IMG/VR virus record: IMGVR_UViG_3300047457_000833
Coordinates: 1-53,849 of that record
Length of the DNA stretch: 53,849 bases
Source of the DNA: a virus
Reading direction: 5' to 3' (one strand)
Numbering within the stretch: the first letter of the stretch is position 1; every line of letters starts with the position of its first letter. The position numbers and the translations under genes were made by a program. Under the pieces are notes generated by a model that searched no databases, had not been told where the DNA came from, and worked only from the letters and a program-made list of their open reading frames with translations. Positions 32,573 to 53,174 of the stretch are shown one piece after another.

Positions 32573-33549
32573 AACTTCTCTTTGCCGATACCGAACTCGT
32601 CGGTGAACGCGTTCGCCACCTGCAACGCTTCCGAGATCGTCATGTCGACACGCACGACTTTGACGTTAAGGTCGCCCAGACCGTCCTTCGAGTCTGCGCC
32701 GACTGCGGCAGCCCAACGGTGATGGCCGTCAATCACATAATTGTCTTTTGACACGTAGATCGTGCCTGAGTCCCACTTCTTGGAGTCCATGATGCCTGCG
32801 ACCTTGTCGCTCTTCAGTTCGGCCTGCGACGCTTTGAGGCTGGCAGCAGGAACCTTTTCTTCGGTTACTTTCACGCCTTCGCCTTTGAGGAACTTGAGGA
32901 ACGCTGGCCCTGCGTCAACCTGACCCTTGTCGTCGGCGATCTTCGCCGCTTCGCTGCCTTCGCGTGCTGTTCCCGACAACTGTGGCATCTCAGCGCGAGG
33001 AAGTGGCTTGCCGTCCGCGTCGGCGAGTGACTGACCGCAGAACACGTTCGTGCCTTTCACTGACACGTTGCAAAGGTTGATGCGCACCTTCTCGCCGCGC
33101 TCCTTCGCTTCATTGACCATTTTGTGTAGTTCTTTGAGAAGCGTGTTCACTTGCTTCTCGTCCTCGAGTTCAACGACCTCACCCTTCGCCATCCGTTTGA
33201 TCGCCTCTTCGACCGTCTTGACGCGGATCGGCTCAGGCCGCTTCACAAGCATCGCCTTTGCTGATCGTTTGCCCGACTTCAAATCACGCACGATGCCCGA
33301 CGCCTGCGACTCGGTTCCAACACCTGAGGCGTCAACCCACTGATTCCCTCTAAATGGATGACCTTCGTAGTCGCCCTTGCGCAAGGCCTGCGCCTTCAAC
33401 ATCGCGGAAGCAAGCGCGCGGCGTGCTGAAACTGACGAACCCTCGACACCTTTGCGCTCGATCTCTTTGCGAACGATTCCCCATGTCGGGTCGTCAAGCG
33501 TCGAGTACGGTCGCAGCGAATCAACAATTCTTAGTTCGTGTTCAAACAC
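32569..33549 (-). CDS. Tagged ParB-like protein (reverse strand)
   Basis: A 326-residue protein read from GTG 33549. A helical, basic start (residues 1-57) leads to the cargo-tag module KGDYEGHPFRGNQW (residues about 58-71). A long Lys/Glu-rich middle follows. The last 90 residues form a ParB/sulfiredoxin-like domain with the nucleotide-site motif YVIDGHHRWAAA. It is the only tagged protein outside the portal-to-scaffold block. A -10-like TACACT lies seven bases before the start. It ends on the large terminase stop. Confidence 0.65.
   Translation of the reverse strand: MFEHELRIVDSLRPYSTLDDPTWGIVRKEIERKGVEGSSVSARRALASAMLKAQALRKGDYEGHPFRGNQWVDASGVGTESQASGIVRDLKSGKRSAKAMLVKRPEPIRVKTVEEAIKRMAKGEVVELEDEKQVNTLLKELHKMVNEAKERGEKVRINLCNVSVKGTNVFCGQSLADADGKPLPRAEMPQLSGTAREGSEAAKIADDKGQVDAGPAFLKFLKGEGVKVTEEKVPAASLKASQAELKSDKVAGIMDSKKWDSGTIYVSKDNYVIDGHHRWAAAVGADSKDGLGDLNVKVVRVDMTISEALQVANAFTDEFGIGKEKF
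33337..33378 (-). repeat. Cargo-tag module, copy in the ParB-like protein
   Basis: Reads KGDYEGHPFRGNQW followed by VDASG. It has Glu at the variable fifth position, shared with the copies at 42358 and 52236. Confidence 0.9.
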
Positions 33550-36256: not shown

Positions 36257-36515
36257 CGACCTGCAACCACTCGACATCGTCAAAGTTGTGTGGGAGGACG
36301 CCCACAACCTAGAGGATGGATGGAAAACCCTTGCTGATCTCACCGAAGAAGCGATCTCGTGCCGCATCGAGACCGTTGGCTTCTGGTTGATGCAAACGAA
36401 CGCGTTCGCGGTTCTCTGCTCCGATGTCGACCGTTCAAGTGAGCCAGTACACTTCCACACGGTGCTCACCATCCCGTTGCACTGCATCATCGAAATTGAG
36501 CGACTAAATGGCTAA
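36234..36515 (+). CDS. Small hypothetical protein before the portal gene
   Basis: A 93-residue protein from ATG 36234. It is mostly beta with acidic turns (QPLDIVKVVWEDAHNLEDGW, FHTVLTIPLHCIIEIE). It overlaps the portal start by eight bases and is therefore co-translated with it. Function unknown. Confidence 0.5.
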   Translation: MGIHATVNDLQPLDIVKVVWEDAHNLEDGWKTLADLTEEAISCRIETVGFWLMQTNAFAVLCSDVDRSSEPVHFHTVLTIPLHCIIEIERLNG

Positions 36516-37926
36516 AACAGACGGCTACGACTTTCAGGAGATCGGCTCCTCAGGACTCAAACGAGTCGCTGGTTTCATTGACGACGAAATCGTAAATTCG
36601 TTACGCGGCCTACAAGGCGCGAAAACCTATCGTGAGATGGCCGACAACGATCCCGTCATCGGCGCGATGCTTTACGCCATCGAGCGACTCATCATCCAAA
36701 TTGACTGGCGTGTCGAGCCATTCAGGGACGAAAACGACGAGACGACGAAGAAAGACGAAGAGATCGCCCAATTCGTTGAATCATGCCTGTACGACATGTC
36801 GGACTCATGGGAATCCACCCTCTCAAACCTCCTCACATTCCTCACCTACGGGTACGCATACTGCGAAATCGTCTACAAACGCCGCCTCGGACGCGACCAA
36901 GACGACCCGACGAAACGCTCCCAATTCGACGACGGACGGATCGGCTGGCGCAAGATCGCGCTCCGCGCCCAAGAAACCACATGGGAGTGGATGCTCGACG
37001 AAAAAGGCGGCATTCAAGGCCTCAAGCAGTTAGACCCATCAGTCGGGCCACTCGTAGAAATCCCCATTGAGAAGGCTCTGCTGTTCCGCGCCTCCACCGC
37101 CCGAAACAACCCCGAAGGACGCAGCATCCTCCGCAACGCATACCGCGCATGGCGATTCAAAAAGACCATCGAGGAAATCGAAGCCATCGGCATGGAACGC
37201 GACCTCGCAGGTATGCCCGTCGCCTATGTCCCTCCGTCAATGTTGTCGTCTGCCGCCACAAACGCCGAAGTTTCGGCCCGTTCCGCTATCGAGAACCTTG
37301 TGCGCGGCATCAAACGAAACGAGAACGAAGGAATCCTGTTCCCTCTCGCCTACGATTCCGAGGGCCGTCAAACCTACAAACTGGAACTGCTGAACGCTGG
37401 CGGCAACCGCCAATTCGACACCGACAAAATCATCACGCGCTACGACCAGCGCATCGCAATGACCGTGCTCGCCGACTTCATCCTGCTCGGCCACGCCAAC
37501 GTCGGATCGTTCGCGCTCGGCGCATCCAAAATCGATCTGTTCACGACCGCTATCGGCCAGATCGCACAGTCAATTGCTGAAACCTTCAACCAACACGCGC
37601 TCCCACGCCTCCTCAAACTGAACGGCATGGACACATCTCGAGCACCCGAACTGACGTTCGGCGAAATCACTCACGTCGACCTTGCACTGCTCGCCGACTT
37701 CATCCAGAAGGCGTCCGCAAGTGGCGCACTCATCATCGATCAGGGCATGGACGAGTACCTGCGCCTCATCTCGGGTCTCCCAGAGCGCGATCAAGAGTCT
37801 GCTGAAGGCGTGCCCCAAATGCCGAACAACGCCGCTTCTCAGCCACCTGCACCTCAACCTGCCGCCAAGCCAGAACCCAAACCTGAAGCCGATGCGCAGA
37901 CCGAAACACCGCCACAGCCGCAGTAA
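36508..37926 (+). CDS. Portal protein (Mu gp29/DUF935-like)
   Basis: A 472-residue protein. The start contains the portal-typical segment KTYREMADNDPVIGAMLYAI followed by ERLIIQIDWRVEPF. A long helical core includes YGYAYCEIVYKRR, and a VLADFILLGHANVGSFALG segment matches Mu-type portals. The C-terminus is a Pro/Gln/Glu-rich tail (about residues 440-472). It forms the dodecameric ring at the capsid vertex. MuF follows directly, as in Mu-like packaging modules. Confidence 0.82.
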   Translation: MAKTDGYDFQEIGSSGLKRVAGFIDDEIVNSLRGLQGAKTYREMADNDPVIGAMLYAIERLIIQIDWRVEPFRDENDETTKKDEEIAQFVESCLYDMSDSWESTLSNLLTFLTYGYAYCEIVYKRRLGRDQDDPTKRSQFDDGRIGWRKIALRAQETTWEWMLDEKGGIQGLKQLDPSVGPLVEIPIEKALLFRASTARNNPEGRSILRNAYRAWRFKKTIEEIEAIGMERDLAGMPVAYVPPSMLSSAATNAEVSARSAIENLVRGIKRNENEGILFPLAYDSEGRQTYKLELLNAGGNRQFDTDKIITRYDQRIAMTVLADFILLGHANVGSFALGASKIDLFTTAIGQIAQSIAETFNQHALPRLLKLNGMDTSRAPELTFGEITHVDLALLADFIQKASASGALIIDQGMDEYLRLISGLPERDQESAEGVPQMPNNAASQPPAPQPAAKPEPKPEADAQTETPPQPQ

Positions 37927-38881
37927 CCACAGGCATCAACGCCGACCAGTCGCCAAGCAAGACTTCCGCGACGGCGAATTCGCGTCAGACCTCGAAGCCA
38001 TCTTCGCGCGCGAACTGTTGAACGCCATCGCCAAACTGCGCCGATCCGTCACATCCGCAGAAGTTGAGGCGGCCATTCGCCGATCCGTCGCCGACGCCGT
38101 GCGCGCCCTCGACGCCGCGTTCTCCGAGGTTGATCTCACAAACATCGTGAACTCGATGACAAAAGAAATCATCCGAGCAGGCCTCGAGCAAACCCCAGAA
38201 CTCGCGGCTGGAGGCATCAACATCCGCTTCGATGTGTCCGACCCACGCGCCATCCAATGGGCACAGAACAGGGCAGGTCTGCTGATCCGCAACATCACAG
38301 ACGAAGTCCGTCTCAAAGTGAGCGACGTCACCCAACGCCTCCTCACAGGCGACATCTCGCTACGAGAAGCACGCAACGAGATTTCACGCACAGTCGGCCT
38401 CCACGACCGATGGCAGAAAGCCGTCGACAACTCCTACGAGAAAACCCTCGAGCAACTCCTCGAGGCTGGCATCGACATCGACGAAGCCGAAACACTCGCA
38501 CAGGAAGCCGCCGACAACTACGCGCAACGCCTGCTGAAAACCCGAGCATCAAACATCGCTCGAACCGAAATGTCGACTGCCATGAATCAAGGCCGCTACC
38601 TGCACTGGCAGCAACTCGCCGAAGCAGGCGTCATTGACTCCGTTCGCTCAGTAAAAGAGTGGAGAACCGCACCCGAGTTCGTGTCATCAAAGACCGATGT
38701 TTGCCCGATTTGTGAGCCAATGAACGGCATTCAGGCTCCGATGTGGGCAGAGTTCCCAGAGGTTGGTGTGGTGATGCCTCCAGCCCACCCGAACTGTCGC
38801 TGCCGAGCAGTTCTTATCGTGGAACCTATCGCAGATGTCATTGATTATGTGACGTCGATGCGCGAGCAACTTGGCTATTAG
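37892..38881 (+). CDS. MuF-type head morphogenesis protein
   Basis: A 329-residue protein. ATG 37892, overlapping the portal end by 35 bases, is the most plausible start. The first 20 residues are very basic (RRPKHRHSRSNHRHQRRPVA). The core has RASNIARTEMSTAMNQGRYL, then the Cys/His signature TDVCPICEPMNG and PPAHPNCRCRAV, which defines the MuF family. A few copies enter the prohead through the portal. MuF proteins often carry C-terminal toxins; this one has none, but the tagged effector genes follow it at once. Confidence 0.85.
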   Translation: MRRPKHRHSRSNHRHQRRPVAKQDFRDGEFASDLEAIFARELLNAIAKLRRSVTSAEVEAAIRRSVADAVRALDAAFSEVDLTNIVNSMTKEIIRAGLEQTPELAAGGINIRFDVSDPRAIQWAQNRAGLLIRNITDEVRLKVSDVTQRLLTGDISLREARNEISRTVGLHDRWQKAVDNSYEKTLEQLLEAGIDIDEAETLAQEAADNYAQRLLKTRASNIARTEMSTAMNQGRYLHWQQLAEAGVIDSVRSVKEWRTAPEFVSSKTDVCPICEPMNGIQAPMWAEFPEVGVVMPPAHPNCRCRAVLIVEPIADVIDYVTSMREQLGY

Positions 38882-39084: not shown

Positions 39085-42000
39085 GTGCCGTACCGCGTAG
39101 AACGCCGAGGGTCTTGCCCACCAGACCGCCCATTTGCAGTTGTTCTCGAGTCGTCAGGGGAGACGGTCGCCTGCCACGCGACACGCGCTGGTGCGGAGCG
39201 TCAAATCGCCGCCATCTACGCCTCTGAGCACGATTTGGAGAAGGAGCAGCCCACGTCGTCGGGTGTGCATGTTGACACGATCATGGGTGAGGAAGAAAAG
39301 CGTCGTCGCCTGCTGAAATTCGCGCCAGTGGCCGTGATCAAAGGAGACTATGTCGGTCATCCATTCAGAGGCAACCAATGGACGGACGCGTCTGGAGTCT
39401 CAAGGCAGCCAGCCGAATCTATGCGCGATATGAGTCGCGCAGGTCAATCATTGAACCCGACCGACGATCCTCTCGTTGCTGAAACAGAAGGCCGCCCGTT
39501 TGAGGGCTTCCTTGATTTGTCTCCAGAAACTCAAGCGATGCTTGATGCTCGCGATGCGTACTTCATTCGAGTGCGCGAAGTTCGTGACGAAGCGAAACGC
39601 ATCGTTGGTGAAAAAGAAGCAAAGGCATTCACAACCCCTGACGCACTGTTTGACGAGGCACAACGCATCGATCCGTCGTTCGCAGAGACACGGAAAGACG
39701 CGGTGTACACAGGCCCAAACGTCTACAAGATCGTTGACAAAATCAAAACCGATATGTTGCTCGCGTACGGAGCGAAACCGCTTCCTGAGGGCGAAACCGC
39801 GCCGACTCTCTATTATGCTGCTTTCACACGCGAAGAGTCGGGTCGCCTTACGTCCGAACAACGCACCATCGATCCTAAAGTAGACGTCACCCCGTTGCGC
39901 GAACGCGGTATGTCGGATCAACAAATAGGCGAACTGGTGCATGCCGTTGAAGTGAAAGCAAACCGTTTGCTTGACGGCCCCGAAGTCCGTTCCGCACAGT
40001 TCGGGCAGTCAGTTCCCGATCAGATCGCCGCAGAACGCAAATTGATCCCCGTGCTCGAGGAAGAACTCAAGAACGCTCGAGTGAGCGTCACAGTCACTCC
40101 ACGAATCCTGTCAAACATCCTCGCCGATGAACGGTTCAAGACGCAGTTTGAGACAGGGAAGTCAAGAGGATATAACTCAACGCAGGCCCGTCAAGACGAA
40201 GAACTAGCACGGTTCGGCTACCCCACACAGATGCCAGCCGACAAACGACCTGTTTACGGGATGATCGAGGTTGGTGGCCTGCGCACCCCGAGCGAACGCG
40301 GAAACCTCCAATATGGCAATGTGCTGGTGGTGCTGAAACCAGAAGTTGCCGACCGCACCACGTTCTCCGCAGATGATTCTCTCAGCAATTACCGTCCAAG
40401 CGCACCGCTTCGTGAACCGAATACGCGCGGCATTTTGTCGGCCTTCGTGGAGAACACTCACACGGCAGACGAGATTCGGTCAGGCGAAATGTATCTTGAG
40501 GCTCAAGTGCACGGTGGAGTCAAGTTGTCCGATATTGGGATGGTCATCTTCGAGTCTGGCGTCCAAATCGAGAACCGTAGCGGAGACAAAGTCAAGACGG
40601 CGACCGCGCCGAGCGCAGCCCTGCTGAAACGACTCGAGAAGGCTGGCATTCCGTACCAGATCGTGACGTCAGGCGCAGACATTAAGCCTGTCGAAAAAGC
40701 AGTCGGCTTTGACCCGACGCTACTCATCAAAGGCGATTATGTCGGCCACCCGTTTCGCGGCAACCAGTGGACAGACGCGTCAGGAGTGTCTCGTCGGCAA
40801 GCCATGTCGGGTGCTGATCGCTCGAGTGGTATCGCCAACTTGCAGGCTGTAGACACCGTTGAGGAGGCGCGTGCCACAGGCCGCCCACTCAAGATTCTGC
40901 AACCCGAGCACTATCCACCACAGGTCAAAGCAGCGTTAGCGGCCCATCGACAGGCCCAAGACGCGATCAACGCGCTACACGAAGAGATTGTAGGACAACC
41001 CGAAACCGAAGAAGCCACTAAACGCTTTTATGCTGATCGACGCGTACAAGTCGCGGAACTTGCACTTCAGTTAGCACTAGATGAAGCCAGAGTGCAACTC
41101 ACTACCGAACTTGCAAAGAAATATGGATTCACAGTTGAACAAAACCCAGAAGCACCCTATGAACGCATTCCATACGAGAACGTTTGGCGTGATCCCGATG
41201 GCCGTCTCAAGCGCGAAGAAGCATATTTTTACCCATCGAAGTTTGCGGAAGGATATCGCTGGACTGCCGCACCGTTAACACTGCTTAACCCAGATGGCTC
41301 TTACCGTCTTGTTTATCAGGGCGAAAACAAAGAACAAAAGTTGGGCTACGAATCGTTCTACGGGATTCCTATCGAGTCCTTGCGCACAGGGAAACCACCT
41401 TTTAGTTCATACGACGCTTCGGGCAATCCTGATCAACCACAACAAGACCAGAAGGCTGTTGATGCAGCGCGACAAATATTAATTAAAGAGGCCAAAGACC
41501 TCGGTATCGATTTGCCTGAAACCACTCAACCGCCACGCCTATCCGCCAAAAACCTTAAAGGAAGCCTGTCTGACGACGACATAGGTGTGCTTGGAAGCCA
41601 CATTTTCCAAACGGGTATGCGAGCGTTTCTTGGGGAAACTAAAGAAATCGATACGACGTTGTCTTGGACTGACCCAAAGGGCGACGTCACGGCGACCCTC
41701 ATTGCGAGGCAGGGCCGATTAGTGACAGACGACGCTCCGCTTTCGGTGACTGTTCCAGCGAACAAGGTTGGAGCGATTCTCAAGGATGGCCGCCTAAAAA
41801 GCCAGTTTGAGACAGGCAGATCGGGTGGCAAGAACGATCCCGAGATTCGTGCCGATTGGGAGGCCGCCATGTTCGGCTATCCGCGTGGCATGAATCCCGA
41901 GCAGAGGCCGATTTACGGGATGGTTGAAACAGGTGGCCCAAAGCCGTCCTCGACGCGAGGCAATGAGCAGTATGGCACGGTCACGCTTGTGCTGAAAGAT

Positions 42001-44754
42001 GACGTGAAGGATCGAGCGACCTTCACGAACGGCGACTCTCTTAACATGAACAGACAGTTTGTTCCAGTGCGTGACCCGTCAAGCCGTCTGGCCCAAGAAA
42101 GAGTGTCGGGTCGTATGGAGGTCGGAGATGACAACGACACCTACTACGAAACCCAGATTCACGGTGGAGTCAAAACATCCGACATCGCTAAAGTCATCAT
42201 CGACACACGAACCTACAAAGACTTCAAATGGATTAGCGTTCCTCCGTCTGCTGCGCTGCTGAAATCACTAGACAAGGCTGGCATCCCCTACGAGATCGTG
42301 GCAGGCAAGAACTTCCAAGACCCCGAAGCGCATAAAAGCGCGACACCCATCCTCGCCAAAGGCGACTATGAAGGCCACCCTTTCCGAGGTAACCAGTGGG
42401 TCGACGCGTCAGGCGCACGACCAGCATTCGCAATCCCCGACAACGGCGTTGATTTCAACCCGTACAGTGCTGAAGCCAAAGACTATTCGGAGATGGATCG
42501 CCGCAACGAACGCATCGAGTTCTCTGCGAACGCGTCCGTCGCCTTCGACGACGCGCGTCAAGCCGACCTGCTTCGTCTCAACGATCTGCGCGGAGTGGGC
42601 ATTATCGAGGTTCCTGCACCAGCCGACAAAACGAATCCGCGTCGCTACAGGCTTGTGGTGCGTCTCGGCGGCTACGACACAACCCTTGTTCTTGATTCCT
42701 TGAAGGAGCATCGCAACTTTGATGAGGCTTTGAAACGCAAGCCGAAGGTGCAGGAACTGCTCGAGGAATTCGTCAACAACCCAACACTCAAAGTTCGTGC
42801 CATCGACGCCGACGTGTGGGAGTACGAGTATGTCGCACAGTCAGGGCCGAACAAGGGTCGCACCATCACGAAGCGCACATCGTTCGTGAAACCGCAGTAT
42901 TCGCAGCAGCCCGATGTGGTTCTGAAGTCACTCAGCGTGACCAAAGGCGACTATGTGGGCCACCCGTTCAGGGGTAACCAGTGGATGGACGCCAACGGCG
43001 TGCCGCGTGGTGAAAGCAGGTCAGGAGAGTCAATCAAGATCGAGCGTCCCGAGATAGGCGACCTTGTGCTTGCTGCCGAACATGATGTCGGTCACACGGA
43101 CACGGTGGCCATGTTCCTCACCGACGACATCAGGCGACGCGACAACGCCCTAACCGAGTCACGCAATCAGGCTTTAGGTCTTGAGGGATTTCAGGGCGAA
43201 GGAACCTACGGCGCGTCGTTCTTTAAGCATCAGGTTGCTTTGGGTGTTGCTGAAACCCTGTCGTCAGTCCCGTTTGACGAATCCAAAACCGCCTTCACTG
43301 ACCTTATGGCGTTACAAGGCTATGAGGATGAGGCGCGCATCTTTACTGACGGTTTGCGCGGCTTGGTGAAAATTGATGATTCCGTGATTGTTAAGCCAGC
43401 CGAATACGAAGGCATGGTTTCAATCACGATCAACGGCGAGGAATCCCTTCACACCATTTCAGACCTCATCACAGACGGTGGAGCGATTCTTTCTCTGCCT
43501 AACCCAAATTCAAAGATTCGCGGCATCATTGGCTTTGACGAAAAAGCATTCAAGAATGTGCTGGAGGCGGAAGGTCTCAGCGTTTTATGGAACCTCGACT
43601 ACATCCCAGAATCCCCGAGAGAGCCTGATCCGCGACTCAAAGATAAACGAGAAGCGTGGCTACGCGCCTTCAAGGCGGGCCTCACAAGCCCAAACGCTGG
43701 CCAAGACATCGTTGTCGACGTGAGCGAATCGTTCCCAAGAATTGATGGTGGTCTAGAGATTCGGCGAGTGGAGGACGGTTTTAGGGAATTGTCACGCATC
43801 CCTCGGAATCGTGGCGAAAATATCAAGAGTCTTTATCTTGATCTAGGGAATCAAGCGTCTCGAGACCTTCAGACCCTCATCCCTAACGGCTTGGTCTTTG
43901 ACAAAGAAACGGTCGTCGGTTATGGGCTGGCGACGCAACTTGTCGGGAACTGGGCCAAAACTGCCAACGACTCGCACGTTGTAGCGCACCTAATTCAGGA
44001 CGTGGCCCGTCAAGAATTCGGTCTTGAACAAGCCACTGACTGGTCTACTAAAACGATGACCCTCACTGGTGAACCGCAAATTCAGGAACAAAGCCGCGCA
44101 CTGCTCAAACAGAACGGGCCGCTTGTCAAAACGATAGGGCTTGCACTGCGCTCGATGCATGACGCCACTCAACGCCATTTTGAGGCACAAGGAATCCAAT
44201 ACGTGCTGCTTTATCGTGGTGAAGGCGACACACCTGATTCCACAGAAAGCGATTCACTCACGACGCAAGTTAACCAATTGGGTAACATCGGGAAAGGCGT
44301 TACTTCTATCGCTACCACTCGCCCACTGTCGTCGTGGGCAGCGACCGTGTCGACTGCTGAACAGTTCTCCTATGGGTCGCGGAGCGCGATAGCGCGAGCC
44401 ATAGTACCCATCCAAGACATTCTGTCCATCCCATCTACAGGCTTCGGTTGCTTCGACGAGGATGAATTCGTGGTTCTCGGGCGGCCTCGCATGGTGGACG
44501 TGAACCTTGCCAGCACGATGGGTAGCCGTGCGTCTCTTGCAGTTGGTGGAGCACGACGCGTTCTTGACTTGGCAGAGAGCGTAGAGATGGCGTACCCGAG
44601 GGGATCTAATCGCGGTCGGGAGATGCGAGCATATTTTGAGATTCAACCAGTGAACACGGGCTACAAGGATGAAGCAGAGCGAGCGACGCAAGAAGCCCTT
44701 GACTCAGTCATCCGTCAACTTGAAGCCGATCCGAACACGATGATTCCAGCGTGA
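39085..44754 (+). CDS. Giant multi-domain tagged protein with ADP-ribosyltransferase-like end
   Basis: An 1889-residue protein from GTG 39085. Four tag modules (residues 86, 549, 1092 and 1287) divide it. Residues 1-50 hold a small phage N-domain (VERRGSCPPDRPFAVV, then CHATRAGAERQIAAIY). Segments 1 and 2 each end in a DUF3626-like domain (about 330-535 and 880-1085; YGM.E.GG ... EAQVHGG). Segment 3 is a short unknown domain. Segment 4 ends in an ADP-ribosyltransferase-like fold: Arg1711 in LLYRGEGD, Ser1749-Ser1750 in PLSSWAAT and Glu1792-x-Glu1794 in FDEDEFVVLG. This R-S-ExE set is the arginine-specific type. It looks like four fused cargo proteins delivered to the host; that role is inferred. 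Confidence 0.7.
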   Translation: MPYRVERRGSCPPDRPFAVVLESSGETVACHATRAGAERQIAAIYASEHDLEKEQPTSSGVHVDTIMGEEEKRRRLLKFAPVAVIKGDYVGHPFRGNQWTDASGVSRQPAESMRDMSRAGQSLNPTDDPLVAETEGRPFEGFLDLSPETQAMLDARDAYFIRVREVRDEAKRIVGEKEAKAFTTPDALFDEAQRIDPSFAETRKDAVYTGPNVYKIVDKIKTDMLLAYGAKPLPEGETAPTLYYAAFTREESGRLTSEQRTIDPKVDVTPLRERGMSDQQIGELVHAVEVKANRLLDGPEVRSAQFGQSVPDQIAAERKLIPVLEEELKNARVSVTVTPRILSNILADERFKTQFETGKSRGYNSTQARQDEELARFGYPTQMPADKRPVYGMIEVGGLRTPSERGNLQYGNVLVVLKPEVADRTTFSADDSLSNYRPSAPLREPNTRGILSAFVENTHTADEIRSGEMYLEAQVHGGVKLSDIGMVIFESGVQIENRSGDKVKTATAPSAALLKRLEKAGIPYQIVTSGADIKPVEKAVGFDPTLLIKGDYVGHPFRGNQWTDASGVSRRQAMSGADRSSGIANLQAVDTVEEARATGRPLKILQPEHYPPQVKAALAAHRQAQDAINALHEEIVGQPETEEATKRFYADRRVQVAELALQLALDEARVQLTTELAKKYGFTVEQNPEAPYERIPYENVWRDPDGRLKREEAYFYPSKFAEGYRWTAAPLTLLNPDGSYRLVYQGENKEQKLGYESFYGIPIESLRTGKPPFSSYDASGNPDQPQQDQKAVDAARQILIKEAKDLGIDLPETTQPPRLSAKNLKGSLSDDDIGVLGSHIFQTGMRAFLGETKEIDTTLSWTDPKGDVTATLIARQGRLVTDDAPLSVTVPANKVGAILKDGRLKSQFETGRSGGKNDPEIRADWEAAMFGYPRGMNPEQRPIYGMVETGGPKPSSTRGNEQYGTVTLVLKDDVKDRATFTNGDSLNMNRQFVPVRDPSSRLAQERVSGRMEVGDDNDTYYETQIHGGVKTSDIAKVIIDTRTYKDFKWISVPPSAALLKSLDKAGIPYEIVAGKNFQDPEAHKSATPILAKGDYEGHPFRGNQWVDASGARPAFAIPDNGVDFNPYSAEAKDYSEMDRRNERIEFSANASVAFDDARQADLLRLNDLRGVGIIEVPAPADKTNPRRYRLVVRLGGYDTTLVLDSLKEHRNFDEALKRKPKVQELLEEFVNNPTLKVRAIDADVWEYEYVAQSGPNKGRTITKRTSFVKPQYSQQPDVVLKSLSVTKGDYVGHPFRGNQWMDANGVPRGESRSGESIKIERPEIGDLVLAAEHDVGHTDTVAMFLTDDIRRRDNALTESRNQALGLEGFQGEGTYGASFFKHQVALGVAETLSSVPFDESKTAFTDLMALQGYEDEARIFTDGLRGLVKIDDSVIVKPAEYEGMVSITINGEESLHTISDLITDGGAILSLPNPNSKIRGIIGFDEKAFKNVLEAEGLSVLWNLDYIPESPREPDPRLKDKREAWLRAFKAGLTSPNAGQDIVVDVSESFPRIDGGLEIRRVEDGFRELSRIPRNRGENIKSLYLDLGNQASRDLQTLIPNGLVFDKETVVGYGLATQLVGNWAKTANDSHVVAHLIQDVARQEFGLEQATDWSTKTMTLTGEPQIQEQSRALLKQNGPLVKTIGLALRSMHDATQRHFEAQGIQYVLLYRGEGDTPDSTESDSLTTQVNQLGNIGKGVTSIATTRPLSSWAATVSTAEQFSYGSRSAIARAIVPIQDILSIPSTGFGCFDEDEFVVLGRPRMVDVNLASTMGSRASLAVGGARRVLDLAESVEMAYPRGSNRGREMRAYFEIQPVNTGYKDEAERATQEALDSVIRQLEADPNTMIPA
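39340..39381 (+). repeat. Cargo-tag module 1 of the giant protein
   Basis: Encodes KGDYVGHPFRGNQW then TDASG, at residues 86-99. It comes after the small N-terminal domain and before the first helical and DUF3626-like segment. Confidence 0.9.
40729..40770 (+). repeat. Cargo-tag module 2 of the giant protein
   Basis: Encodes the same peptide as module 1 but with many different third-codon bases, so it is conserved as protein. It marks the junction at residue 549, right after the first DUF3626-like domain. Confidence 0.9.
42358..42399 (+). repeat. Cargo-tag module 3 of the giant protein
   Basis: KGDYEGHPFRGNQW then VDASG at residue 1092. It follows the second DUF3626-like domain and precedes the short unknown domain. 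Confidence 0.9.
42943..42984 (+). repeat. Cargo-tag module 4 of the giant protein
   Basis: KGDYVGHPFRGNQW then MDANG at residue 1287. It opens the 600-residue segment that ends in the ADP-ribosyltransferase-like domain; the same MDANG ending is found at 45787. Confidence 0.9.
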
Positions 44755-44779: not shown

Positions 44780-45736
44780 GTGCTGAACCTTGATCCGACA
44801 CCGTTGGCAGCCGACTGGATGCGTGTCGTCGCGTTCAACGCAGAGTTCGGGCCAATCAACACGCTGGATGAATTTATCGACAAGATGGGGATCAGTCGCT
44901 CGTCGGCATTGCGTCCACAGTTAGCGCAGTACGCGTCGATGGCGTGGCTTCATTTGCTGCCGTACCCTGTGCAGCAGGCGATCAAGGAGGCGGCGAGAGT
45001 CTCGAAGGCTGTGCCGATGTTTGGGCCGTCCGTGCTGATCAAAGGCGATTATGTTGGCCACCCATTTAGAGGCAACCAATGGACAGATTCATCGGGTGTA
45101 AGCCGTAGCGGTCAGGGGTCTGGTGCGCGCCCGAGCGACAAAACGCTGCGCACCATCGCGTTTGAGATGGACTCAAAGATGGAAGTTCTAAAAGATGAAG
45201 GCGCGCGTCTCGTCAAGTTCGCTGGCGGCATCGAATTCGTAGACAGGCAGGCCTACATCGACCAACTTCCGCTTGTGTCGCGTGCAACACCGAATCATCA
45301 GGTGATCGCCAGTGGCGTGACAATGACAGAGGAAGCCCTGAATGACGAAGCCGATGTCGCTGTCATAGAGGATCGTGACGGACAGGTTTGTGGCGCAATT
45401 TCAATGAGCAGCAAGCCGTACACTTCTCAGGAGTTGTCGGAGTTTCTTGGTGGGGTCGACCCGAACTCAACTTGGATCGAGATGCGTAGCGCAGGCTCGA
45501 CAATGAAAGTTGATGGTGTCGGCTCGGGCTTGTTCGCGGCAGCGATTTCTAAGGCTGCCGAATCGGGGTCTGGCCTGTATTTGTCGCCGCTTGACGAGAG
45601 TGCCAGACAGTTCTGGGCTTCTAAAGGTTTCAGGGAGGCGGAACGCGTCGGTGGTAGCGAAGGCACCTACCAGTATCTGGACGCCGAATCGGTGCGAATC
45701 ATCGCCAACAACCTCGAGGAAGGGTGGGGCGCGTGA
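44780..45736 (+). CDS. Tagged GNAT acetyltransferase-like protein
   Basis: A 318-residue protein from GTG 44780. Residues 1-85 are a helical lead (WMRVVAFNAEFGPINTLDEF). The tag is at residues 88-101. The C-terminal half reads as a GNAT fold: an acidic strand AVIEDRDGQVCGAISM, the strand STWIEMRSAGS, then DGVGSGLFAAAISKA (Gly246-Gly250, acetyl-CoA loop) and SARQFWASKGFREAE (the usual final helix and strand). It could acetylate a host protein or small molecule. It overlaps the next gene by four bases (GTGA at 45733). Confidence 0.7.
   Translation: MLNLDPTPLAADWMRVVAFNAEFGPINTLDEFIDKMGISRSSALRPQLAQYASMAWLHLLPYPVQQAIKEAARVSKAVPMFGPSVLIKGDYVGHPFRGNQWTDSSGVSRSGQGSGARPSDKTLRTIAFEMDSKMEVLKDEGARLVKFAGGIEFVDRQAYIDQLPLVSRATPNHQVIASGVTMTEEALNDEADVAVIEDRDGQVCGAISMSSKPYTSQELSEFLGGVDPNSTWIEMRSAGSTMKVDGVGSGLFAAAISKAAESGSGLYLSPLDESARQFWASKGFREAERVGGSEGTYQYLDAESVRIIANNLEEGWGA
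45041..45082 (+). repeat. Cargo-tag module of the GNAT protein
   Basis: KGDYVGHPFRGNQW then TDSSG at residues 88-101, between the helical lead and the catalytic region. Confidence 0.9.
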
Positions 45737-47865
45737 TTCCAGCCTTCGATCTATTTGATGTCGCTTTAACGGACGAGGATGTGCTGAAAGGCGACTACGT
45801 AGGTCATCCGTTTAGGGGAAACCAGTGGATGGACGCGAACGGTGTCGCTCGAGGCGACGCAGGGTCATCTCCCGATCAAGACAAGCAGGCCTACGACCTG
45901 CGTCAACAGGGCAAATCTTGGGAAGAGATCGCCAAGATTCTCGGCTACGCGAACGGTGGCTCGGTGCGTCGTCTGGCGATGCGTCACGAGAAACGACTGA
46001 AGGACGGCGGTCAGGAAGTGGTGAAACCTGAACCCAAACCTGAGCCGAAGGTTAAGCCGCCGAAGGGTCGTGAACCTGAAAATTATGACGAGGCTGTTGC
46101 GCTGGCTAAATCGCTAATCAAGGCCACGTTCAACGGTGACGCCATCGCCACGCTCACTAAATTGATGGCGGATTCAGGGAAAACCTTTGATCCGAACGAT
46201 GAGGCATACAAACTGACTGATGCCGAACGCGTAATGGAGGAGAAGGTTCTAATGGTCGGGGACGCTGTGCGGATGGCGTTGGCGTTCGCTCAAGCCCAAG
46301 CAAGTGGCCTCGACCCGAAGGAAGCGGCGCGTGTCCGAGAGGAGCATGACGCGCTTAAGAATGCGTGGCAGAAACTAGTAGACGCCCGTGCGGAAGCAGA
46401 AAAAACCGCGCTGGCGGATGCCAGAAAAGCATTGACTGGATCAAAACAAGGTGCATCTTGGAATCCAACTTTCACAGTTAGCAGTTTCGCGGATCAGATA
46501 GCCGCTGCGAGAGCACTAGCCGAGCGTGACGGTCTGCTGAAACCAGACGAATCAATCCAATACATCGGTGGGAGCGTGGCGTTAGGTTTTGCTGGAGCAA
46601 AAGCATCAACAGAACTGCAAACCCTTGTGGATCAGTTAAAAGCCGACGAACCCACTGCCGATGTTAGAACTCGCGGCAAAGATCTATTCGTGCCAGTAGA
46701 CCCTCGCAGCACTACCGCGAGCCTTGTGCGCGCCGTGTACGACGCCAACAAAGACGCATTGCAGTTGATTGAGGCACTCTCGAGCGAAGTCACCGCAGGC
46801 AGAAAAACCGTTGCCGAGGTGAAACAAATCTTGTCCTCGCCCACAGCCATTGTTGACCAGATGAACCGCACCTATGTGCTTCCAGAAAACAAAGGGGAAC
46901 GAACCGACAACGATTACCGTGACACCCATGCAGGTTGGAGTGGTCGTCAAGTGTCGCTGCTGAAACCAGAAACACGACAAGAAATGCTCGTCGCCGCAGT
47001 CCAGAAAGCGGCCCAAAGTTCCAACATTGTCGACTCCATCGGTGCGGTAATGAGCCGACCGATTGGTGATCTCGTCGGCGTCAACATAGGAAAACTTGAC
47101 CCGACGATGACCTATCGGCAGGTTCAGGAACGTCAAATTGAAATCAACACTAAAATTAGAGAACAAAACGAAAAGCAAGAAGCAAGCGGAATCTCTCGCG
47201 GAACTGTCGTTAGACGCGTCCTTGAAGATGTCGGTGTCAAAATGGCCTCTCCTGACCTGTTGCGTGTCAACTTTGATCCGAAGCGCAAGGATGCTGCGGA
47301 ATTGACTGCGGCGGCACGCGAAATCTCGATGATGCTCCCTCGAGCGTTCGTGCTTGGTTCTGATTCGCTCAAACCTCAGTTCTCTGGCGGTGGCCACATG
47401 ACGGCGGAACTCAAGTTCGGTGGCGGTCGCGCCCACGCCCAGAATCTGATGGGTGGCAAATTCATCATCAAACATGAAACCATTCCTACAAACTCGGCCA
47501 GAGGCCTTACTTCGTGGAAGTCGGTGTTTCTTCACGAGACGGTGCACGGAATGGAGTACGCAAATCCCCTAATCCGCTACCTCGAATACTTGACTTGGAC
47601 TCGGCGTGGCGAAGGCGAGCCTTTGCGAACACTAAAATCGATCACAGGCGCGTCGGGGTATCAGTCTTACGAAAAGGGCAAGAAGGATGCGTGGGGAAAC
47701 GCTTACGCTGGCAAAGAATACGGTAAAAGCGGAACGTCAACGTATGAGATCATGACCACAGGAATGCAAAGCCTCTATTTTGGGGATGAGCGCGCCGACC
47801 GCGAGCATTTGAATGCGGTGCTCGGAATTTTGGCGGCGGCAAGCACACTGGCAGGCAACAAATGA
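45733..47865 (+). CDS. Tagged HTH-metallopeptidase protein
   Basis: A 710-residue protein from GTG 45733 (GTG 45724 would add three residues). The tag is at residues 19-32. It is followed at about 55-90 by the recurring HTH (GKSWEEIAKILGYANGGSVR, then RLAMRHEKRL) and a Pro/Lys linker. A long helical middle with Ala-rich coiled coils runs to about 420. The C-terminal domain is a zincin: SVFLHETVHGMEY with HETVH at residues 601-605 and a downstream STYEIMTTG whose Glu672 could be the third ligand. It may bind DNA and cut a host protein after injection; this is inferred. Confidence 0.7.
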   Translation: MIPAFDLFDVALTDEDVLKGDYVGHPFRGNQWMDANGVARGDAGSSPDQDKQAYDLRQQGKSWEEIAKILGYANGGSVRRLAMRHEKRLKDGGQEVVKPEPKPEPKVKPPKGREPENYDEAVALAKSLIKATFNGDAIATLTKLMADSGKTFDPNDEAYKLTDAERVMEEKVLMVGDAVRMALAFAQAQASGLDPKEAARVREEHDALKNAWQKLVDARAEAEKTALADARKALTGSKQGASWNPTFTVSSFADQIAAARALAERDGLLKPDESIQYIGGSVALGFAGAKASTELQTLVDQLKADEPTADVRTRGKDLFVPVDPRSTTASLVRAVYDANKDALQLIEALSSEVTAGRKTVAEVKQILSSPTAIVDQMNRTYVLPENKGERTDNDYRDTHAGWSGRQVSLLKPETRQEMLVAAVQKAAQSSNIVDSIGAVMSRPIGDLVGVNIGKLDPTMTYRQVQERQIEINTKIREQNEKQEASGISRGTVVRRVLEDVGVKMASPDLLRVNFDPKRKDAAELTAAAREISMMLPRAFVLGSDSLKPQFSGGGHMTAELKFGGGRAHAQNLMGGKFIIKHETIPTNSARGLTSWKSVFLHETVHGMEYANPLIRYLEYLTWTRRGEGEPLRTLKSITGASGYQSYEKGKKDAWGNAYAGKEYGKSGTSTYEIMTTGMQSLYFGDERADREHLNAVLGILAAASTLAGNK
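45787..45828 (+). repeat. Cargo-tag module of the HTH-metallopeptidase
   Basis: KGDYVGHPFRGNQW then MDANG, very near the N-terminus (residues 19-32). This is the shortest lead of any copy, so the lead is not needed. Confidence 0.9.
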
Positions 47866-48191: not shown

Positions 48192-48197
48192 GTGACC

Positions 48198-49718
48198 ATG
48201 ATTTCTGTCGGAGACATCCTCGAGCGTCCACGCAAATCAGGCGGTGTTGAGCGCGCTCTGGTTGAGAAGGTGCGCACGTCAGGCAACGTGCTGATCAACG
48301 GCTCGCAGGTAGCCGCAACCTCCGAGAACCCTGTGGTCACAGCCAGAATCGTGGTACTGGACGGCGAGTCGGTGCTCAAGACTCGAGCCACACGCACTTT
48401 CGTGCACAAAATGCACGGCGACGACCATGAGATGGGCGTTTATACGCTTGTTCCGCGCCAGAAGGCGATGTACGAGATGTATGAGGCCATCGTCGGGCAG
48501 ATGGGCCAGTTTGATAAAAGTGTTGGTGGGAATGGTGCTCACTACGCGGACGGCACGGAGAACGTGTTCCTGTCGGAGGGGATGCAGTGCGCTAACTGCG
48601 TGTTTTACTGCGGTGGCCGAGCCTGCGAAGTTGTTGCTGGAGACATCGACCCGTTGGGCATCTGCAAACTGTGGATCATCGCTGAGCCTCTTCTCGGCCA
48701 GCAGGCTACGCCTGTGCTGATCTCTGAGCGCGAACTAGGGATTGAGAAGGCATCAAACTTCACTCCACCGCAAGCGGTGCGTGACGCCGCGCAACGGGCC
48801 GTCAAATGGATCGAGGAAGGGAAGGCTGGCGACGGCTTCACGGCGGTCGGTGCAGGCCGTGCGCGCGATCTCGCAGCAGGACGGGCAGTGTCGCTCGAGA
48901 CCGTCAAGCGGATCTCCAACTTCCTGTCGCGCCACGAAGTTGACAAGAAGGCCGAAGGCTTCAGTCAAGGGGAGAACGGCTACCCCTCGGCAGGTCGTGT
49001 CGCTTGGGATGCATGGGGAGGTGATCCTGCGAAGAGTTGGGTGAGTGGAATCCTTGCCGATGTCCAAAAGGCCGCCAAACTGAAGGAAGGCCAGTTCGTT
49101 CGCTGGAACTCGTCAGGTGGCCCTGCGCAAGGCCGCATCGAGCACGTGATGGAAGAAGGCACGCTCGGCGTCCCGAACTCAAGGTTCAAGATTAACGCGC
49201 AGCCCGACGACCCTGCGGTGCTGATCCGCATCTATCAAGAGGGTGCGGACGGATGGGTGGAAACCCCAACCCTTGTCGGTCACAAGGCGTCGACGCTTCG
49301 TCGTATCGAGCCTCTGTCAAAAGCGACACGCCTCATCAAGCAGGCCACCGAGGAACGCTTCACTCTAGCCCCTTGGTATATTCCAGAAAAATATGATGCG
49401 CAGAACGAGTGGACGGACGCGCGCGAACTTCAGAAAGCGTTGTGGGAATACGTTCAGTCTGGTGATCGCACCATCCGTTTGCAGCACAACAAGAATGTGC
49501 GCGCTGGCGAATGGGTGGAAGCAATGACGTTGCCGCACTCGTGGACGACCCCGATGACGAAAGCCAACGGCGCAACCACCGAGATCACATACCCTGCTGG
49601 AACCGTGCTTCTGGGCGTCATCTGGGACGACTGGGCGTGGGACATGGTCAAGAAAGGCGAGATCACGGGCTTCTCCATCGGTGGCTCAGCGGAACGCCTC
49701 GACCTCGAAATGCCCTAA
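48198..49718 (+). CDS. Prohead protease (XkdF-like) with Cys cluster and Tudor-like domain
   Basis: A 506-residue protein from ATG 48198 (GTG 48192 is two codons upstream). In order: a beta-rich start; a Cys cluster at residues 131, 134, 138, 143 and 156 (MQCANCVFYC ... GICKLW), which may bind Fe-S or zinc; a helical region (200-285) with GYPSAGRVAWDAWGGD; a DUF2945/Tudor-like barrel (about 293-371, FVRWNSSGGPAQGRIEHVME); and the XkdF/S78-like protease region (about 385-506) ending KGEITGFSIGGSAERL. It is expected to cleave the scaffold and perhaps the tagged cargo inside the prohead. The extra domains are unusual. Confidence 0.7.
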   Translation: MISVGDILERPRKSGGVERALVEKVRTSGNVLINGSQVAATSENPVVTARIVVLDGESVLKTRATRTFVHKMHGDDHEMGVYTLVPRQKAMYEMYEAIVGQMGQFDKSVGGNGAHYADGTENVFLSEGMQCANCVFYCGGRACEVVAGDIDPLGICKLWIIAEPLLGQQATPVLISERELGIEKASNFTPPQAVRDAAQRAVKWIEEGKAGDGFTAVGAGRARDLAAGRAVSLETVKRISNFLSRHEVDKKAEGFSQGENGYPSAGRVAWDAWGGDPAKSWVSGILADVQKAAKLKEGQFVRWNSSGGPAQGRIEHVMEEGTLGVPNSRFKINAQPDDPAVLIRIYQEGADGWVETPTLVGHKASTLRRIEPLSKATRLIKQATEERFTLAPWYIPEKYDAQNEWTDARELQKALWEYVQSGDRTIRLQHNKNVRAGEWVEAMTLPHSWTTPMTKANGATTEITYPAGTVLLGVIWDDWAWDMVKKGEITGFSIGGSAERLDLEMP

Positions 49719-50857: not shown

Positions 50858-52024
50858 ATGGCGACTGAGATGAACCAAGACGCGATCTACAAGATGTTTG
50901 CGGCGTCCCCTGTCGGGAAGTCGATGTCGGCTGCTGATCTTGACGCGATGCGTCAAATGCTCGAGACGACCCCTGTCACACAGATCGGTGGCTGGTACGG
51001 GGAGCAGATTCGCAAGGCTGCCCGTCTCGCCAAAGGCGATTACGTTGGGCATCCGTTCCGAGGCAACCAATACACCGACGCATCAGGCGTGGGACGAGGC
51101 TCCTCAAGTGGGCCTTCCAGCCGTCGCAGCACCGCCGAGATTGACGCCATCAACGAGCGTCTGGCACGCACAGGCGACAAGCAGTTGATGATGGACGGGC
51201 TTCTCAGCAGTGCTCGAGCAGACGTTGACGCAGCGATGCGTGCAGGGAAAAACAACGTACCGTTGATTGACGGTCTTGCGCTGCTGGAAACCGCGAACCG
51301 TGCAGGCGTTAACACTCCAGAAGGCAAGCAGGCACTTCAACGCGCCTTCGACTGGCTCGAGAACGAGAACTATCACGGGCTTGCTGAAGGCGTCCATAAC
51401 ATCATGCAGGCCAGAGGCCCGAAGAACGGCTACATGGAATTTGAGCGGGATGCAAAAGACTTCGTGTCGTCGCAGATCGCGGAGACCGCACTCTTCGCGG
51501 AAACCGACCTGAAACGACAGATGGACGGCATCGACGGAATCATCGAGACATCAAAAGGCGCAATCGACAACGCCGACGTCAAAGCCGAAAGAAGCGAGAA
51601 TTTTGAGAGCGAGGACGCCGCGAAAGATCGCAAGGACGCATCCGATGTGACTCGCGCTGAGACGCGACTCCAACGGCACGCGAAGGAAGTCAAATCAGTC
51701 TTGGAATCCCTGATCGTATACAGTCGGAATGGGCGCACCGATTCAAACGCTGGTGATATCGAGCGCGCCTACAAGAACCTGTTCAGTAAGGCCTCTCAAC
51801 TTCAGATGCTTCGCTCTGAGATCATGCGCGATAGCGAATTTGAGCGCACCGCAAGCCGTCAAGGTTTTGCTGGCGGCAAGAGCGTCACTGGCAAGTACGG
51901 TTTGCTTCTCGGCAGCATTCGGCAGGCATTAGAGGCGATCAACGAAGTCCAGTCTGAGGTTGATAGTTCCAGCGAATCGATCCGTCAATCCGCCGAACAA
52001 ATGTACGCAGACTCGAAGGGATAA
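50858..52024 (+). CDS. Tagged coiled-coil protein
   Basis: A 388-residue protein from ATG 50858. A helical lead (DAIYKMFAASPVGKSMSAAD) precedes the tag at residues 59-72, which has Tyr in place of the usual Trp. The remaining 300 residues are almost wholly helical with heptad-like repeats (TETALFAETDLKRQMDGID, EVKSVLESLIVY). No enzymatic motif is visible. It may be an internal head protein or a scaffold-type cargo. Confidence 0.6.
   Translation: MATEMNQDAIYKMFAASPVGKSMSAADLDAMRQMLETTPVTQIGGWYGEQIRKAARLAKGDYVGHPFRGNQYTDASGVGRGSSSGPSSRRSTAEIDAINERLARTGDKQLMMDGLLSSARADVDAAMRAGKNNVPLIDGLALLETANRAGVNTPEGKQALQRAFDWLENENYHGLAEGVHNIMQARGPKNGYMEFERDAKDFVSSQIAETALFAETDLKRQMDGIDGIIETSKGAIDNADVKAERSENFESEDAAKDRKDASDVTRAETRLQRHAKEVKSVLESLIVYSRNGRTDSNAGDIERAYKNLFSKASQLQMLRSEIMRDSEFERTASRQGFAGGKSVTGKYGLLLGSIRQALEAINEVQSEVDSSSESIRQSAEQMYADSKG
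51032..51073 (+). repeat. Cargo-tag module of the first coiled-coil protein
   Basis: KGDYVGHPFRGNQY then TDASG. It is the only copy ending in Tyr, so the last position tolerates an aromatic exchange. Confidence 0.9.
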
Positions 52025-52028: not shown

Positions 52029-53174
52029 GTGGCCGAAGTTCGCAAGTGTTCATGTGGTGAAGGTAACCAGCAGGTGCTCGACACGCTGCGCTCCACCACG
52101 CTGGCCGAGATGCCTGTGGACGAATTCAACGAGATCGTCGACGACGTCAACAAGGCTGGCGGCATCCGCAACCTGTCAGGTTTGTCTCGGGTGCTGATCG
52201 AGAAGGCGTTGAACGATTTGCGTGCAGGTGTAGAGAAGGGCGACTACGAAGGTCATCCATTCCGAGGAAATCAGTGGACTGATTCGTCAGGTACTGGACG
52301 TGGCGGCGCAGGCGGTGGGCCAAAAGGTTCTAAGAATCAACGGGCTAGATATTTTGACAGTGCACCTGACCGCCCACAGACCGCTGGTGCTAGATATTTT
52401 GACAGTGCGCCCGACCGCCCACAGGCCGCTGGTGCTAAATATATCGACATGAAAGGGAATTCTCCTCGTCGCGCTGAGAGTGTGCAACAGGAACTGAATC
52501 GCCTGTCTAGAGAAGGCCTACAAAGTCAAATCGATGAACTGAAGATGTATATCGATGACCATAAGGGAATGGCTGAAGTTCTACGCGACCTCGGCAACGA
52601 GGATGGCGCACGACAAGCAGAAGCCAACGCTGCGAAAGCAGAGAAAGAGGTGCGCGGCCTAAAAGCGGAGATCGACAGGCGTCAAAAGCGATTCGAAATG
52701 GATCAAAAAACGGAGTCCGCTAAGACAAAAGTCACCGAGGACAACATTGATTCCAAATTGAAAGGCGATGACCTAAAGCAGTTCAAAGCGCAGGTCAAGG
52801 AAGCCGAGACTGCTGTCAAAGAATTCCGTAAAACTGTCGCAGATATACAAAAGCGCGTGGCCGCCGAAGGAGTTCGTGGCGTTGCTTCTATTCTTAAAGA
52901 AGCACTCAATGAGGCTCGGACGTTTGAGAAGTTGGTGCGCGACGCCAAAGCAGCACCAACCATTCGTCAAGCGGTACGAATGACGTCGTTAGGAACAAAT
53001 GCTGGCGAAAACGCTAAGGGTGCGCTTCGAGAGGTTTTGGGGAAACTAAAGGGCGGCGAAAGCGATGCTGATACAGAAGCAATAAATGCTCTGCAAACTG
53101 CTGGCGACAAATATTTTGGTCTTTCGCCAGACCGATACAACCTTGATGATGCCTTTGATTTCATTGATAGTTGA
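52029..53174 (+). CDS. Tagged coiled-coil protein with peptide repeats
   Basis: A 381-residue protein from GTG 52029. It begins with a Cys pair (KCSCGEGNQ), then a helical lead of the same type as in the previous tagged gene. The tag lies at residues 70-83. A 15-residue peptide unit (ARYFDSAPDRPQTAG) is then repeated twice with a partial third copy. The rest is a long charged coiled coil (QIDELKMYIDDHKGMAEVLR and similar). No enzyme motif is visible. It directly precedes the scaffold gene. Confidence 0.6.
   Translation: MAEVRKCSCGEGNQQVLDTLRSTTLAEMPVDEFNEIVDDVNKAGGIRNLSGLSRVLIEKALNDLRAGVEKGDYEGHPFRGNQWTDSSGTGRGGAGGGPKGSKNQRARYFDSAPDRPQTAGARYFDSAPDRPQAAGAKYIDMKGNSPRRAESVQQELNRLSREGLQSQIDELKMYIDDHKGMAEVLRDLGNEDGARQAEANAAKAEKEVRGLKAEIDRRQKRFEMDQKTESAKTKVTEDNIDSKLKGDDLKQFKAQVKEAETAVKEFRKTVADIQKRVAAEGVRGVASILKEALNEARTFEKLVRDAKAAPTIRQAVRMTSLGTNAGENAKGALREVLGKLKGGESDADTEAINALQTAGDKYFGLSPDRYNLDDAFDFIDS
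52236..52277 (+). repeat. Cargo-tag module of the second coiled-coil protein
   Basis: KGDYEGHPFRGNQW then TDSSG at residues 70-83, the last copy before the scaffold gene. Confidence 0.9.
52344..52451 (+). repeat. 45-bp in-frame tandem repeat
   Basis: Two units of 45 bp (52344-52388 and 52389-52433) differ at four positions, and a decayed third copy starts at 52434. They encode 15-residue units. The DNA similarity is high, so the duplication is recent compared with the tag modules. Confidence 0.75.

What the first reader, a model, noticed from the sequence alone, without database searches (positions are those of the whole stretch)
42943..44754. ADP-ribosyltransferase-like domain with an R-S-ExE set at the end of the giant protein
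LLYRGEGD (Arg1711), PLSSWAAT (Ser1749-1750) and FDEDEFVVLG (Glu1792, Glu1794) stand in the order and spacing of arginine-specific ADP-ribosyltransferases. T4 Alt, an injected head protein, is a precedent for changing host RNA polymerase this way.
Basis: partly seen in the sequence, partly recalled or inferred. Interest (0 to 1): 0.72.

Follow-up and report, generated by a model that had tools for sequence, protein, structure and literature searches.

The report
ADP-ribosylating enzyme carried in phage head
The end of this giant phage protein is very probably an enzyme that would stick ADP-ribose onto molecules of the infected bacterium; it is one of three such domains in the same protein, each sitting behind the same short peptide tag, which recurs across many uncultured phages as the join between head proteins and probable cargo.

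Summary
They are not a chance pattern. In 25 divergent relatives Arg1711 and Glu1794 are invariant, Glu1792 is E or Q, and Ser1749 is 21/25. The predicted fold aligns best with ADP-ribosyltransferases (all of the first 40 aligned PDB entries; Z up to 6.5). The domain has no Pfam entry of its own; relatives score as distant DraT-like (PF07357) enzymes. No profile link to T4 Alt/ModA/ModB was found. Two things go beyond the finding. (1) The DUF3626 domains of segments 1 and 2 also have the ART fold (modelled for segment 2: SopF Z 10.7, DarT about 9), so the protein carries three ART-like domains. (2) Each segment starts with a tag, KGDYVGHPFRGNQW, found nine times in this genome and in at least 120 stretches of other viral contigs, often joining XkdF protease or MuF head domains to cargo. 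In related phages tag+ART is a gene of its own. I read the tag as a packaging or processing signal; that step is inferred.

The parts
39085..44754 (+). Giant 1889-aa polyvalent protein: 85-aa leader plus four tag-led segments
43852..44751 (+). DraT-like R-S-ExE ADP-ribosyltransferase domain plus C-terminal helical tail (modelled part; conserved core about 43951-44502)
44215..44217 (+). codon of Arg1711 (strand-1 Arg of ART fold)
   Evidence: invariant 25/25; in predicted strand 117-124 of the model
44329..44334 (+). codons of Ser1749-Ser1750 (S-S-W/F motif)
   Evidence: each 21/25
44458..44466 (+). codons of Glu1792-Asp-Glu1794 (ExE)
   Evidence: E1792 22/25 (Q in 3), E1794 25/25
42985..43851 (+). 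Segment 4, part between tag and ART domain; no known family
   Evidence: no match in Pfam, PHROGs, NCBIfam
42943..42984 (+). Tag copy 4 (KGDYVGHPFRGNQW), start of the ART segment
39340..39381 (+). Tag copy 1
40729..40770 (+). Tag copy 2
42358..42399 (+). Tag copy 3
40108..40464 (+). DUF3626 domain of segment 1 (44% identical to that of segment 2 in the aligned region), ART fold inferred
   Evidence: Pfam E 4.3e-10
41686..42345 (+). DUF3626 domain of segment 2, predicted ART fold (SopF/DarT-like)
   Evidence: Pfam E 2.6e-13; model and fold comparison
45041..45082 (+). Tag in the GNAT-like ORF 44780-45736
   Evidence: weak GNAT match
45787..45828 (+). Tag in ORF 45724-47865, which has an HExxH (HETVH) metallopeptidase-like end
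51032..51073 (+). Tag in ORF 50465-52024
52236..52277 (+). Tag in ORF 51960-53174
33337..33378 (-). Tag in minus-strand ORF 32569-33549; its cargo occurs elsewhere fused behind XkdF protease plus tag
36508..37926 (+). Mu-like portal protein
   Evidence: PF06074 E 1.1e-35
37682..38881 (+). MuF head protein (true start probably nearer 37980)
   Evidence: PF04233 E 1.6e-9; PHROGs
48192..49718 (+). XkdF-type head maturation protease (Peptidase_S78_2) with further domains
   Evidence: PF14550 E 6.1e-13

Best explanation
The C-terminal domain of the giant protein is a catalytically competent mono-ADP-ribosyltransferase of the R-S-ExE class, distantly related to DraT. It is one cargo module of a polyvalent protein made with the head proteins and carried in the virion. 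On infection it would enter the host with the DNA and transfer ADP-ribose from NAD+ to a host macromolecule, most likely an arginine of a protein, helped by two more ART-fold (DUF3626) domains in the same polypeptide. Shown here: sequence, conservation, predicted fold, gene neighbourhood, modularity. Inferred: activity, packaging, injection, target. The tag in front of each module is inferred to be the packaging or processing signal that joins cargo to the head machinery.
For: Arg1711 and Glu1794 invariant and Glu1792 E/Q in 25 relatives. Predicted model: most of the conserved core at pLDDT 80-92, with Arg in strand 117-124, Ser at strand 159-163 and ExE at the start of strand 205-209. In VIA-align the first 40 entries are all ART-fold proteins (ExoS, ART2.2, Vis, HopU1, VIP2, C3 and others, Z 4.7-6.5). 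BFVD gives SP-15, a head-morphogenesis fusion and the S-PM2 arginine ART. 10 of 17 aligned family members match PF07357 DRAT, best E 1.9e-7, two of those scanned singly over the cut-off. Neighbours are portal, MuF and XkdF protease. In other phages the same domain is fused to MuF/head proteins (L015, L025, L033; G017). Tag+ART occurs as a gene of its own in L057, L058, L073 and L059.
Against: The window sequence alone matches no Pfam, NCBIfam or PHROG model. Z of 5-6.5 is middling, mean pLDDT is 68 and Foldseek against PDB gave no significant match. Virion content has not been measured for this phage. Whether Arg and Glu share one pocket was judged only from their places on the strands; no coordinates were measured.
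Confidence: 0.75

Rival explanations
1. Same fold, different reaction: the domain is an NAD+ glycohydrolase or modifies nucleic acid or a small molecule, depleting NAD+ or countering host defence rather than modifying an arginine of a host protein.
For: The ART fold covers NADases and DNA/RNA-modifying enzymes; the partner domains resemble DarT, a DNA ADP-ribosyltransferase, as well as SopF; plasmid relatives are fused to NUDIX and have QxE instead of ExE.
Against: E at the first position of ExE in 22 of 25, the pattern of arginine transferases; matches of relatives are to DRAT, an arginine-modifying family (substrate from general knowledge).
Confidence: 0.2
2. The module is not injected but acts in the producing cell late in infection, or serves as a toxin against competing bacteria released with the phage, as proposed for MuF polymorphic toxins of prophages (PMC5576092).
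For: MuF-fused effectors have been described as polymorphic toxins (PMC5576092); Zeta toxin is among the commonest recognised families behind the tag.
Against: Place in the head cluster with portal, MuF and protease; several unlike effector domains in one polypeptide fits polyvalent early-acting proteins (PMC5512222). An immunity gene was not sought systematically.
Confidence: 0.12
3. The domain is a decayed, inactive ART kept as a structural or binding part.
For: The window sequence is divergent and scores below every family model.
Against: All catalytic positions are intact in the window and in relatives at about 23-36% identity.
Confidence: 0.07
4. The R, S and ExE are a coincidence and the domain is not an ART.
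For: Only middling structural Z scores.
Against: Conservation of exactly these residues, DRAT matches, only ART-fold entries at the head of the fold list.
Confidence: 0.03

Closest known systems
DraT, dinitrogenase reductase ADP-ribosyltransferase (PF07357)
   Same: Relatives of the domain match the C-terminal 100 positions of the model, covering the R, S and E motifs.
   Different: Window sequence itself falls below detection; the N-terminal helical part (WAxTSxD...EFG) is not covered; phage head context; no reason to expect nitrogenase as target.
T4 Alt / VIP2 clade of ARTs
   Same: R-S-E active-site class, ART fold (VIP2 Z 5.3); Alt is a packaged and injected head protein (PMC5512222).
   Different: No profile-profile similarity to Alt, ModA and ModB; built into a multi-module protein with tags; target unknown.
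ART-PolyVal (PF18760), the ARTs described in polyvalent proteins
   Same: Cargo of multidomain phage proteins; five other tag-led modules in the census match PF18760.
   [quoted passage not shown]); this domain is R-S-ExE and does not match PF18760.
DUF3626 (PF12294), including Salmonella SopF
   Same: Segments 1 and 2 match above cut-off and segment 2 is modelled with the SopF/DarT fold. SopF is annotated with DUF3626 (PMC6682159).
   Different: Phage head-cluster cargo in tandem rather than a type III effector; substrate unknown.
Polyvalent proteins of phages (Iyer et al. 2017, PMC5512222)
   Same: One polypeptide with several effector domains, coded beside MuF, portal and protease.
   Different: Every module is preceded by the same short tag, for which no published mention was found in the open library.

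Membership tests
ART superfamily, R-S-[EQ]xE class | Conserved Arg, Ser, and [EQ]xE in order | tested here: met
   25 relatives: R 25/25, S1749 21/25, E/Q1792 25/25, E1794 25/25
ART superfamily, R-S-[EQ]xE class | ART split beta-sheet fold | tested here: met
   Predicted model; first 40 VIA-align entries are ART-fold proteins, Z 4.7-6.5; middling scores, no solved structure
ART superfamily, R-S-[EQ]xE class | NAD+-dependent ADP-ribose transfer | not testable with these tools
   needs biochemistry
DRAT (PF07357) | Match to the family model over its cut-off | tested here: inconclusive
   10 of 17 family members match at E<=5 and two of those scanned singly are over the cut-off (31.0 and 26.3 bits against 25); the window protein gives no match
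T4 Alt/VIP2 | Detectable profile similarity to Alt, ModA, ModB | tested here: inconclusive
   hhalign probability 0.1%, but the T4 profile had only three poorly aligned sequences
T4 Alt/VIP2 | Packaged in the head and injected | not testable with these tools
   gene neighbourhood and MuF fusions only
ART-PolyVal (PF18760) | Match to PF18760 / H-Y-D active site | tested here: not met
   no match at E<=5 for any of 17 family members; residues are R-S-E
DUF3626 (PF12294), for segments 1 and 2 | Match over the curated cut-off of 27 bits | tested here: met
   39.5 and 50.1 bits
Polyvalent phage proteins | Several unlike effector domains in one polypeptide in a virion gene cluster | tested here: met
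   two DUF3626 domains, a DraT-like ART and unassigned modules in one ORF beside portal, MuF and XkdF protease

The most novel reading that the evidence does not exclude
KGDxxGHPFRGNQ(W/Y) is a general head-cargo code in uncultured phages: a short linear signal, recognised or cut by the XkdF-type head protease or bound by the head scaffold, that lets a phage load and release many unlike effectors, here three ART-fold domains strung in one polyprotein plus several single-module proteins.
Probability: 0.4. Interest if true: 0.85.

Novelty: new variant of a known kind. Interest (0 to 1): 0.62.

Why it matters
Polyvalent phage proteins are thought to deliver batteries of effectors, but how unlike domains are chosen for packaging, and whether the chains are cut, is open. 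The tag ties such cargo to head proteins across many uncultured phages, predicts which unknown proteins travel in the virion, and can be tested in a simple co-expression assay. The ART family, unnamed in Pfam and found in phages and actinobacterial plasmids, puts an R-S-ExE enzyme into a protein class described as using H-Y-D ARTs. Three ART-fold domains in one protein suggest heavy use of NAD+-based host modification.

Tried and rejected
Chance R-S-E pattern: rejected by conservation. A homologous-recombination DNA repeat as the reason for the tag: rejected, because the nine window copies differ by 274 synonymous against 50 non-synonymous codon differences in pairwise comparison, so the protein is what is kept. 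Close relative of T4 Alt: no profile similarity. ART-PolyVal: no match. PDB sequence searches with the family profile gave only spurious hits (part of MRE11, glucose-6-phosphate isomerase). Foldseek against PDB alone was not informative. The single-sequence ART query found no close relative in IMG/VR or genome contigs; the alignment query did. The tag was found in only one isolated phage. Enrichment of the ART family in tag contigs over random contigs is suggestive but not significant after removing contigs already known to carry the ART (5/35 against 0/18, p 0.11). No papers in the open library mention the tag.

Full report
1. The observation. The window is a 53,849-base record of an uncultured virus. 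ORF 39085-44754 encodes 1889 aa. The finding starts at 42943, the first base of the fourth copy of a peptide tag, KGDYVGHPFRGNQW.

2. Relatives of the domain. Segment 4 has no significant match in Pfam, PHROGs or NCBIfam. Sequence searches found it in Bacillus phage SP-15 (E 2e-4) and in plasmids of Streptomyces, Verrucosispora and Euzebya, mostly in NUDIX-containing proteins (best E 4e-9). An alignment of these found 22 loci in IMG/VR, six of which are near-identical lake phages (L017-L022). In an alignment of 25 divergent members the invariant columns are W1623, Q1638, T1695, Q1696, R1711, G1786, G1788 and E1794. E1792 is E in 22 and Q in 3; S1749 is S in 21. Two of the named residues fall among 8 invariant columns of 240.

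3. Fold. AlphaFold2 on window 43852-44751 with 16 relatives gave mean pLDDT 68, with most of the conserved core at 80-92. Strand order places Arg1711 in the first strand of the core, Ser1749 at a middle strand and ExE at the start of a later one. Of the 1000 chains re-aligned by VIA-align 2, the first 40 entries shown are all ART-fold proteins: exoenzyme S Z 6.5, ART2.2 5.7, Vis 5.7, HopU1 5.4, VIP2 5.3, C3 5.2 and others, with KptA/Tpt1 lower down. Foldseek against the viral model library finds SP-15, an uncultured Caudovirales protein with a head-morphogenesis domain, and the arginine ART of Synechococcus phage S-PM2. The absolute scores are middling; it is the unanimity that carries weight. 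I did not have coordinates, so the pocket was not measured.

4. Which ART family. Ten of 17 family members match PF07357 (DRAT), best E 1.9e-7; L026 and L023 exceed its cut-off, and the match covers profile positions 156-252 of 256, that is the R-S-E half. DraT modifies an arginine of dinitrogenase reductase (general knowledge), so arginine is the best guess for the linkage. The profile shows no similarity to T4 Alt/ModA/ModB, though that T4 alignment was thin. Iyer et al. 2017 (PMC5512222, section 9) describe the ARTs of polyvalent proteins as H-Y-D and the Alt/VIP2 family of R-S-E ARTs as absent from genuine polyvalent proteins. This domain is therefore a variant not covered there.

5. Two more ART-fold domains. 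Segments 1 and 2 each carry DUF3626 (39.5 and 50.1 bits against a cut-off of 27). Segment 2 was modelled with six relatives (pLDDT 74.6, pTM 0.74). VIA-align gives Salmonella SopF Z 10.7, Thermus DarT 9.2, yeast Tpt1 9.1 and M. tuberculosis DarT 8.5; nearly all of the rows shown are ART-fold proteins. SopF is itself annotated with DUF3626 (PMC6682159). Segment 1 is 44% identical to segment 2 in the aligned region, so the same fold is inferred. SP-15 encodes proteins of both kinds (A0A127AWP2, A0A127AWP1).

6. The tag. The giant has four copies (39340, 40729, 42358, 42943). Five more proteins of this genome have one each (45041, 45787, 51032, 52236, and 33378 on the minus strand). Among the nine copies there are 274 synonymous and 50 non-synonymous codon differences in pairwise comparison, so selection is on the peptide. 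A somewhat stricter pattern found only 7 stretches in 257 billion bases of cellular genomes. Over 192 distinct copies, information is near background outside positions -7 to +15; positions not fixed by the scan are also conserved (G 94%, D 90%, K 66%, W/Y/H 95%), followed by a Gly-rich stretch. So it is a sharply bounded short motif of about 20 residues, followed by unlike domains (136 modules: Zeta toxin 5, ART-PolyVal 5, DUF3626 5, GNAT, ADPrib_exo_Tox, Arr, DRAT and others; most have no family).

7. Tie to the head. In L041, L068, L084, L090, L114 and L115 the tag lies behind an XkdF-like protease sequence, and in L081 behind a MuF-like one (by reading; PF14550 confirmed by profile in the records of L090, L114 and L115). 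The cargo of the window's minus-strand tagged ORF (32569-33549) is 38-43% identical to the part around and behind the tag in L041, L068, L090 and L123: the same cargo is a tagged gene of its own here and a fusion to the protease there. PF14550 occurs in 17 of 37 tag contigs and 1 of 18 contigs picked by a random 15-mer (p 0.002); MuF in 13 of 29 against 3 of 18 (p 0.046). These contigs are not all independent, and the control is small. The only isolate with the tag, Xanthomonas phage Rb1, has it in a protein annotated internal head protein.

8. Modularity of the ART. In L057, L058 and L073, whose tags read as in the window, the ART is a 509-aa ORF with one tag near its N-terminus; L059 has a 385-aa tag+ART ORF. 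In lake phages L017-L022 it sits near the end of a 2070-aa protein with five tags, followed by pentapeptide repeats. In L015, L025 and L033 the ART is fused to MuF or other head domains. In tag contig G017 two ART domains share an 1820-aa ORF with MuF. So the domain moves as a cargo unit among head-associated proteins.

9. Mechanism. Most likely the giant is made with the head proteins, packaged through its tags or through the head protease, perhaps cut there, and enters the next host with the DNA. There the DraT-like domain ADP-ribosylates a host protein at arginine, and the DUF3626 domains modify other targets. Shown: sequence, conservation, predicted folds, neighbourhood, modularity. Inferred: expression time, packaging, cutting, injection, activity, target. 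A WhiB gene (PF02467) suggests an actinobacterial host.

10. Verdict. Observation confirmed. Interpretation partly supported: ART likely, packaging plausible, RNA polymerase target unsupported. New variant of a known kind; the tag is the most novel element.

Noticed in passing
window 26917-27363 (+): WhiB transcription factor gene (PF02467, E 2.2e-14), suggesting an actinobacterial host.
   Followed up: partly
window 32569-33549 (-): Tagged ORF on the opposite strand inside the head cluster; ends in a ParB-like DGHHRWAA region and is homologous to cargo fused behind XkdF protease plus tag in L041, L068, L090, L123.
   Followed up: yes
L041 6590-8209 (aa 233-275) and window 32569-33549 (-), just upstream of the tag: Alignment of these cargoes extends about 30 residues upstream of the tag (VMREFERGxLKSSxGKxVxxRxQAMAIALSEQRR-like); it resembles a small domain I recall as DUF6496, not tested.
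   Followed up: no
L017 2925-9134 (+): Lake-phage 2070-aa protein: XopAD-like region (aa 955-1145) and pentapeptide repeats right behind the ART, beside five tags.
   Followed up: no
L010 1345-4923, L011 1348-4707, L013 1333-4743: Streptomyces and Verrucosispora plasmids carry 1100-1200-aa proteins with an N-terminal NUDIX domain and this ART with QxE, near CehA/McbA-type metallohydrolase genes in some.
   Followed up: partly
window 48192-49718 (+): The head protease ORF also carries a Hva1_TUDOR domain and a phrog_2859 region, a family that also matches the minus-strand tagged ORF.
   Followed up: no
window 45724-47865 (+): Tagged protein with a C-terminal HETVH (HExxH) metallopeptidase-like region matching phrog_33618 and phrog_8561, which also match a gene next to the Rb1 internal head protein.
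   Followed up: no
window 42397-42942 (+): Third segment of the giant (about 180 aa after its tag) has no match in Pfam or PHROGs.
   Followed up: no
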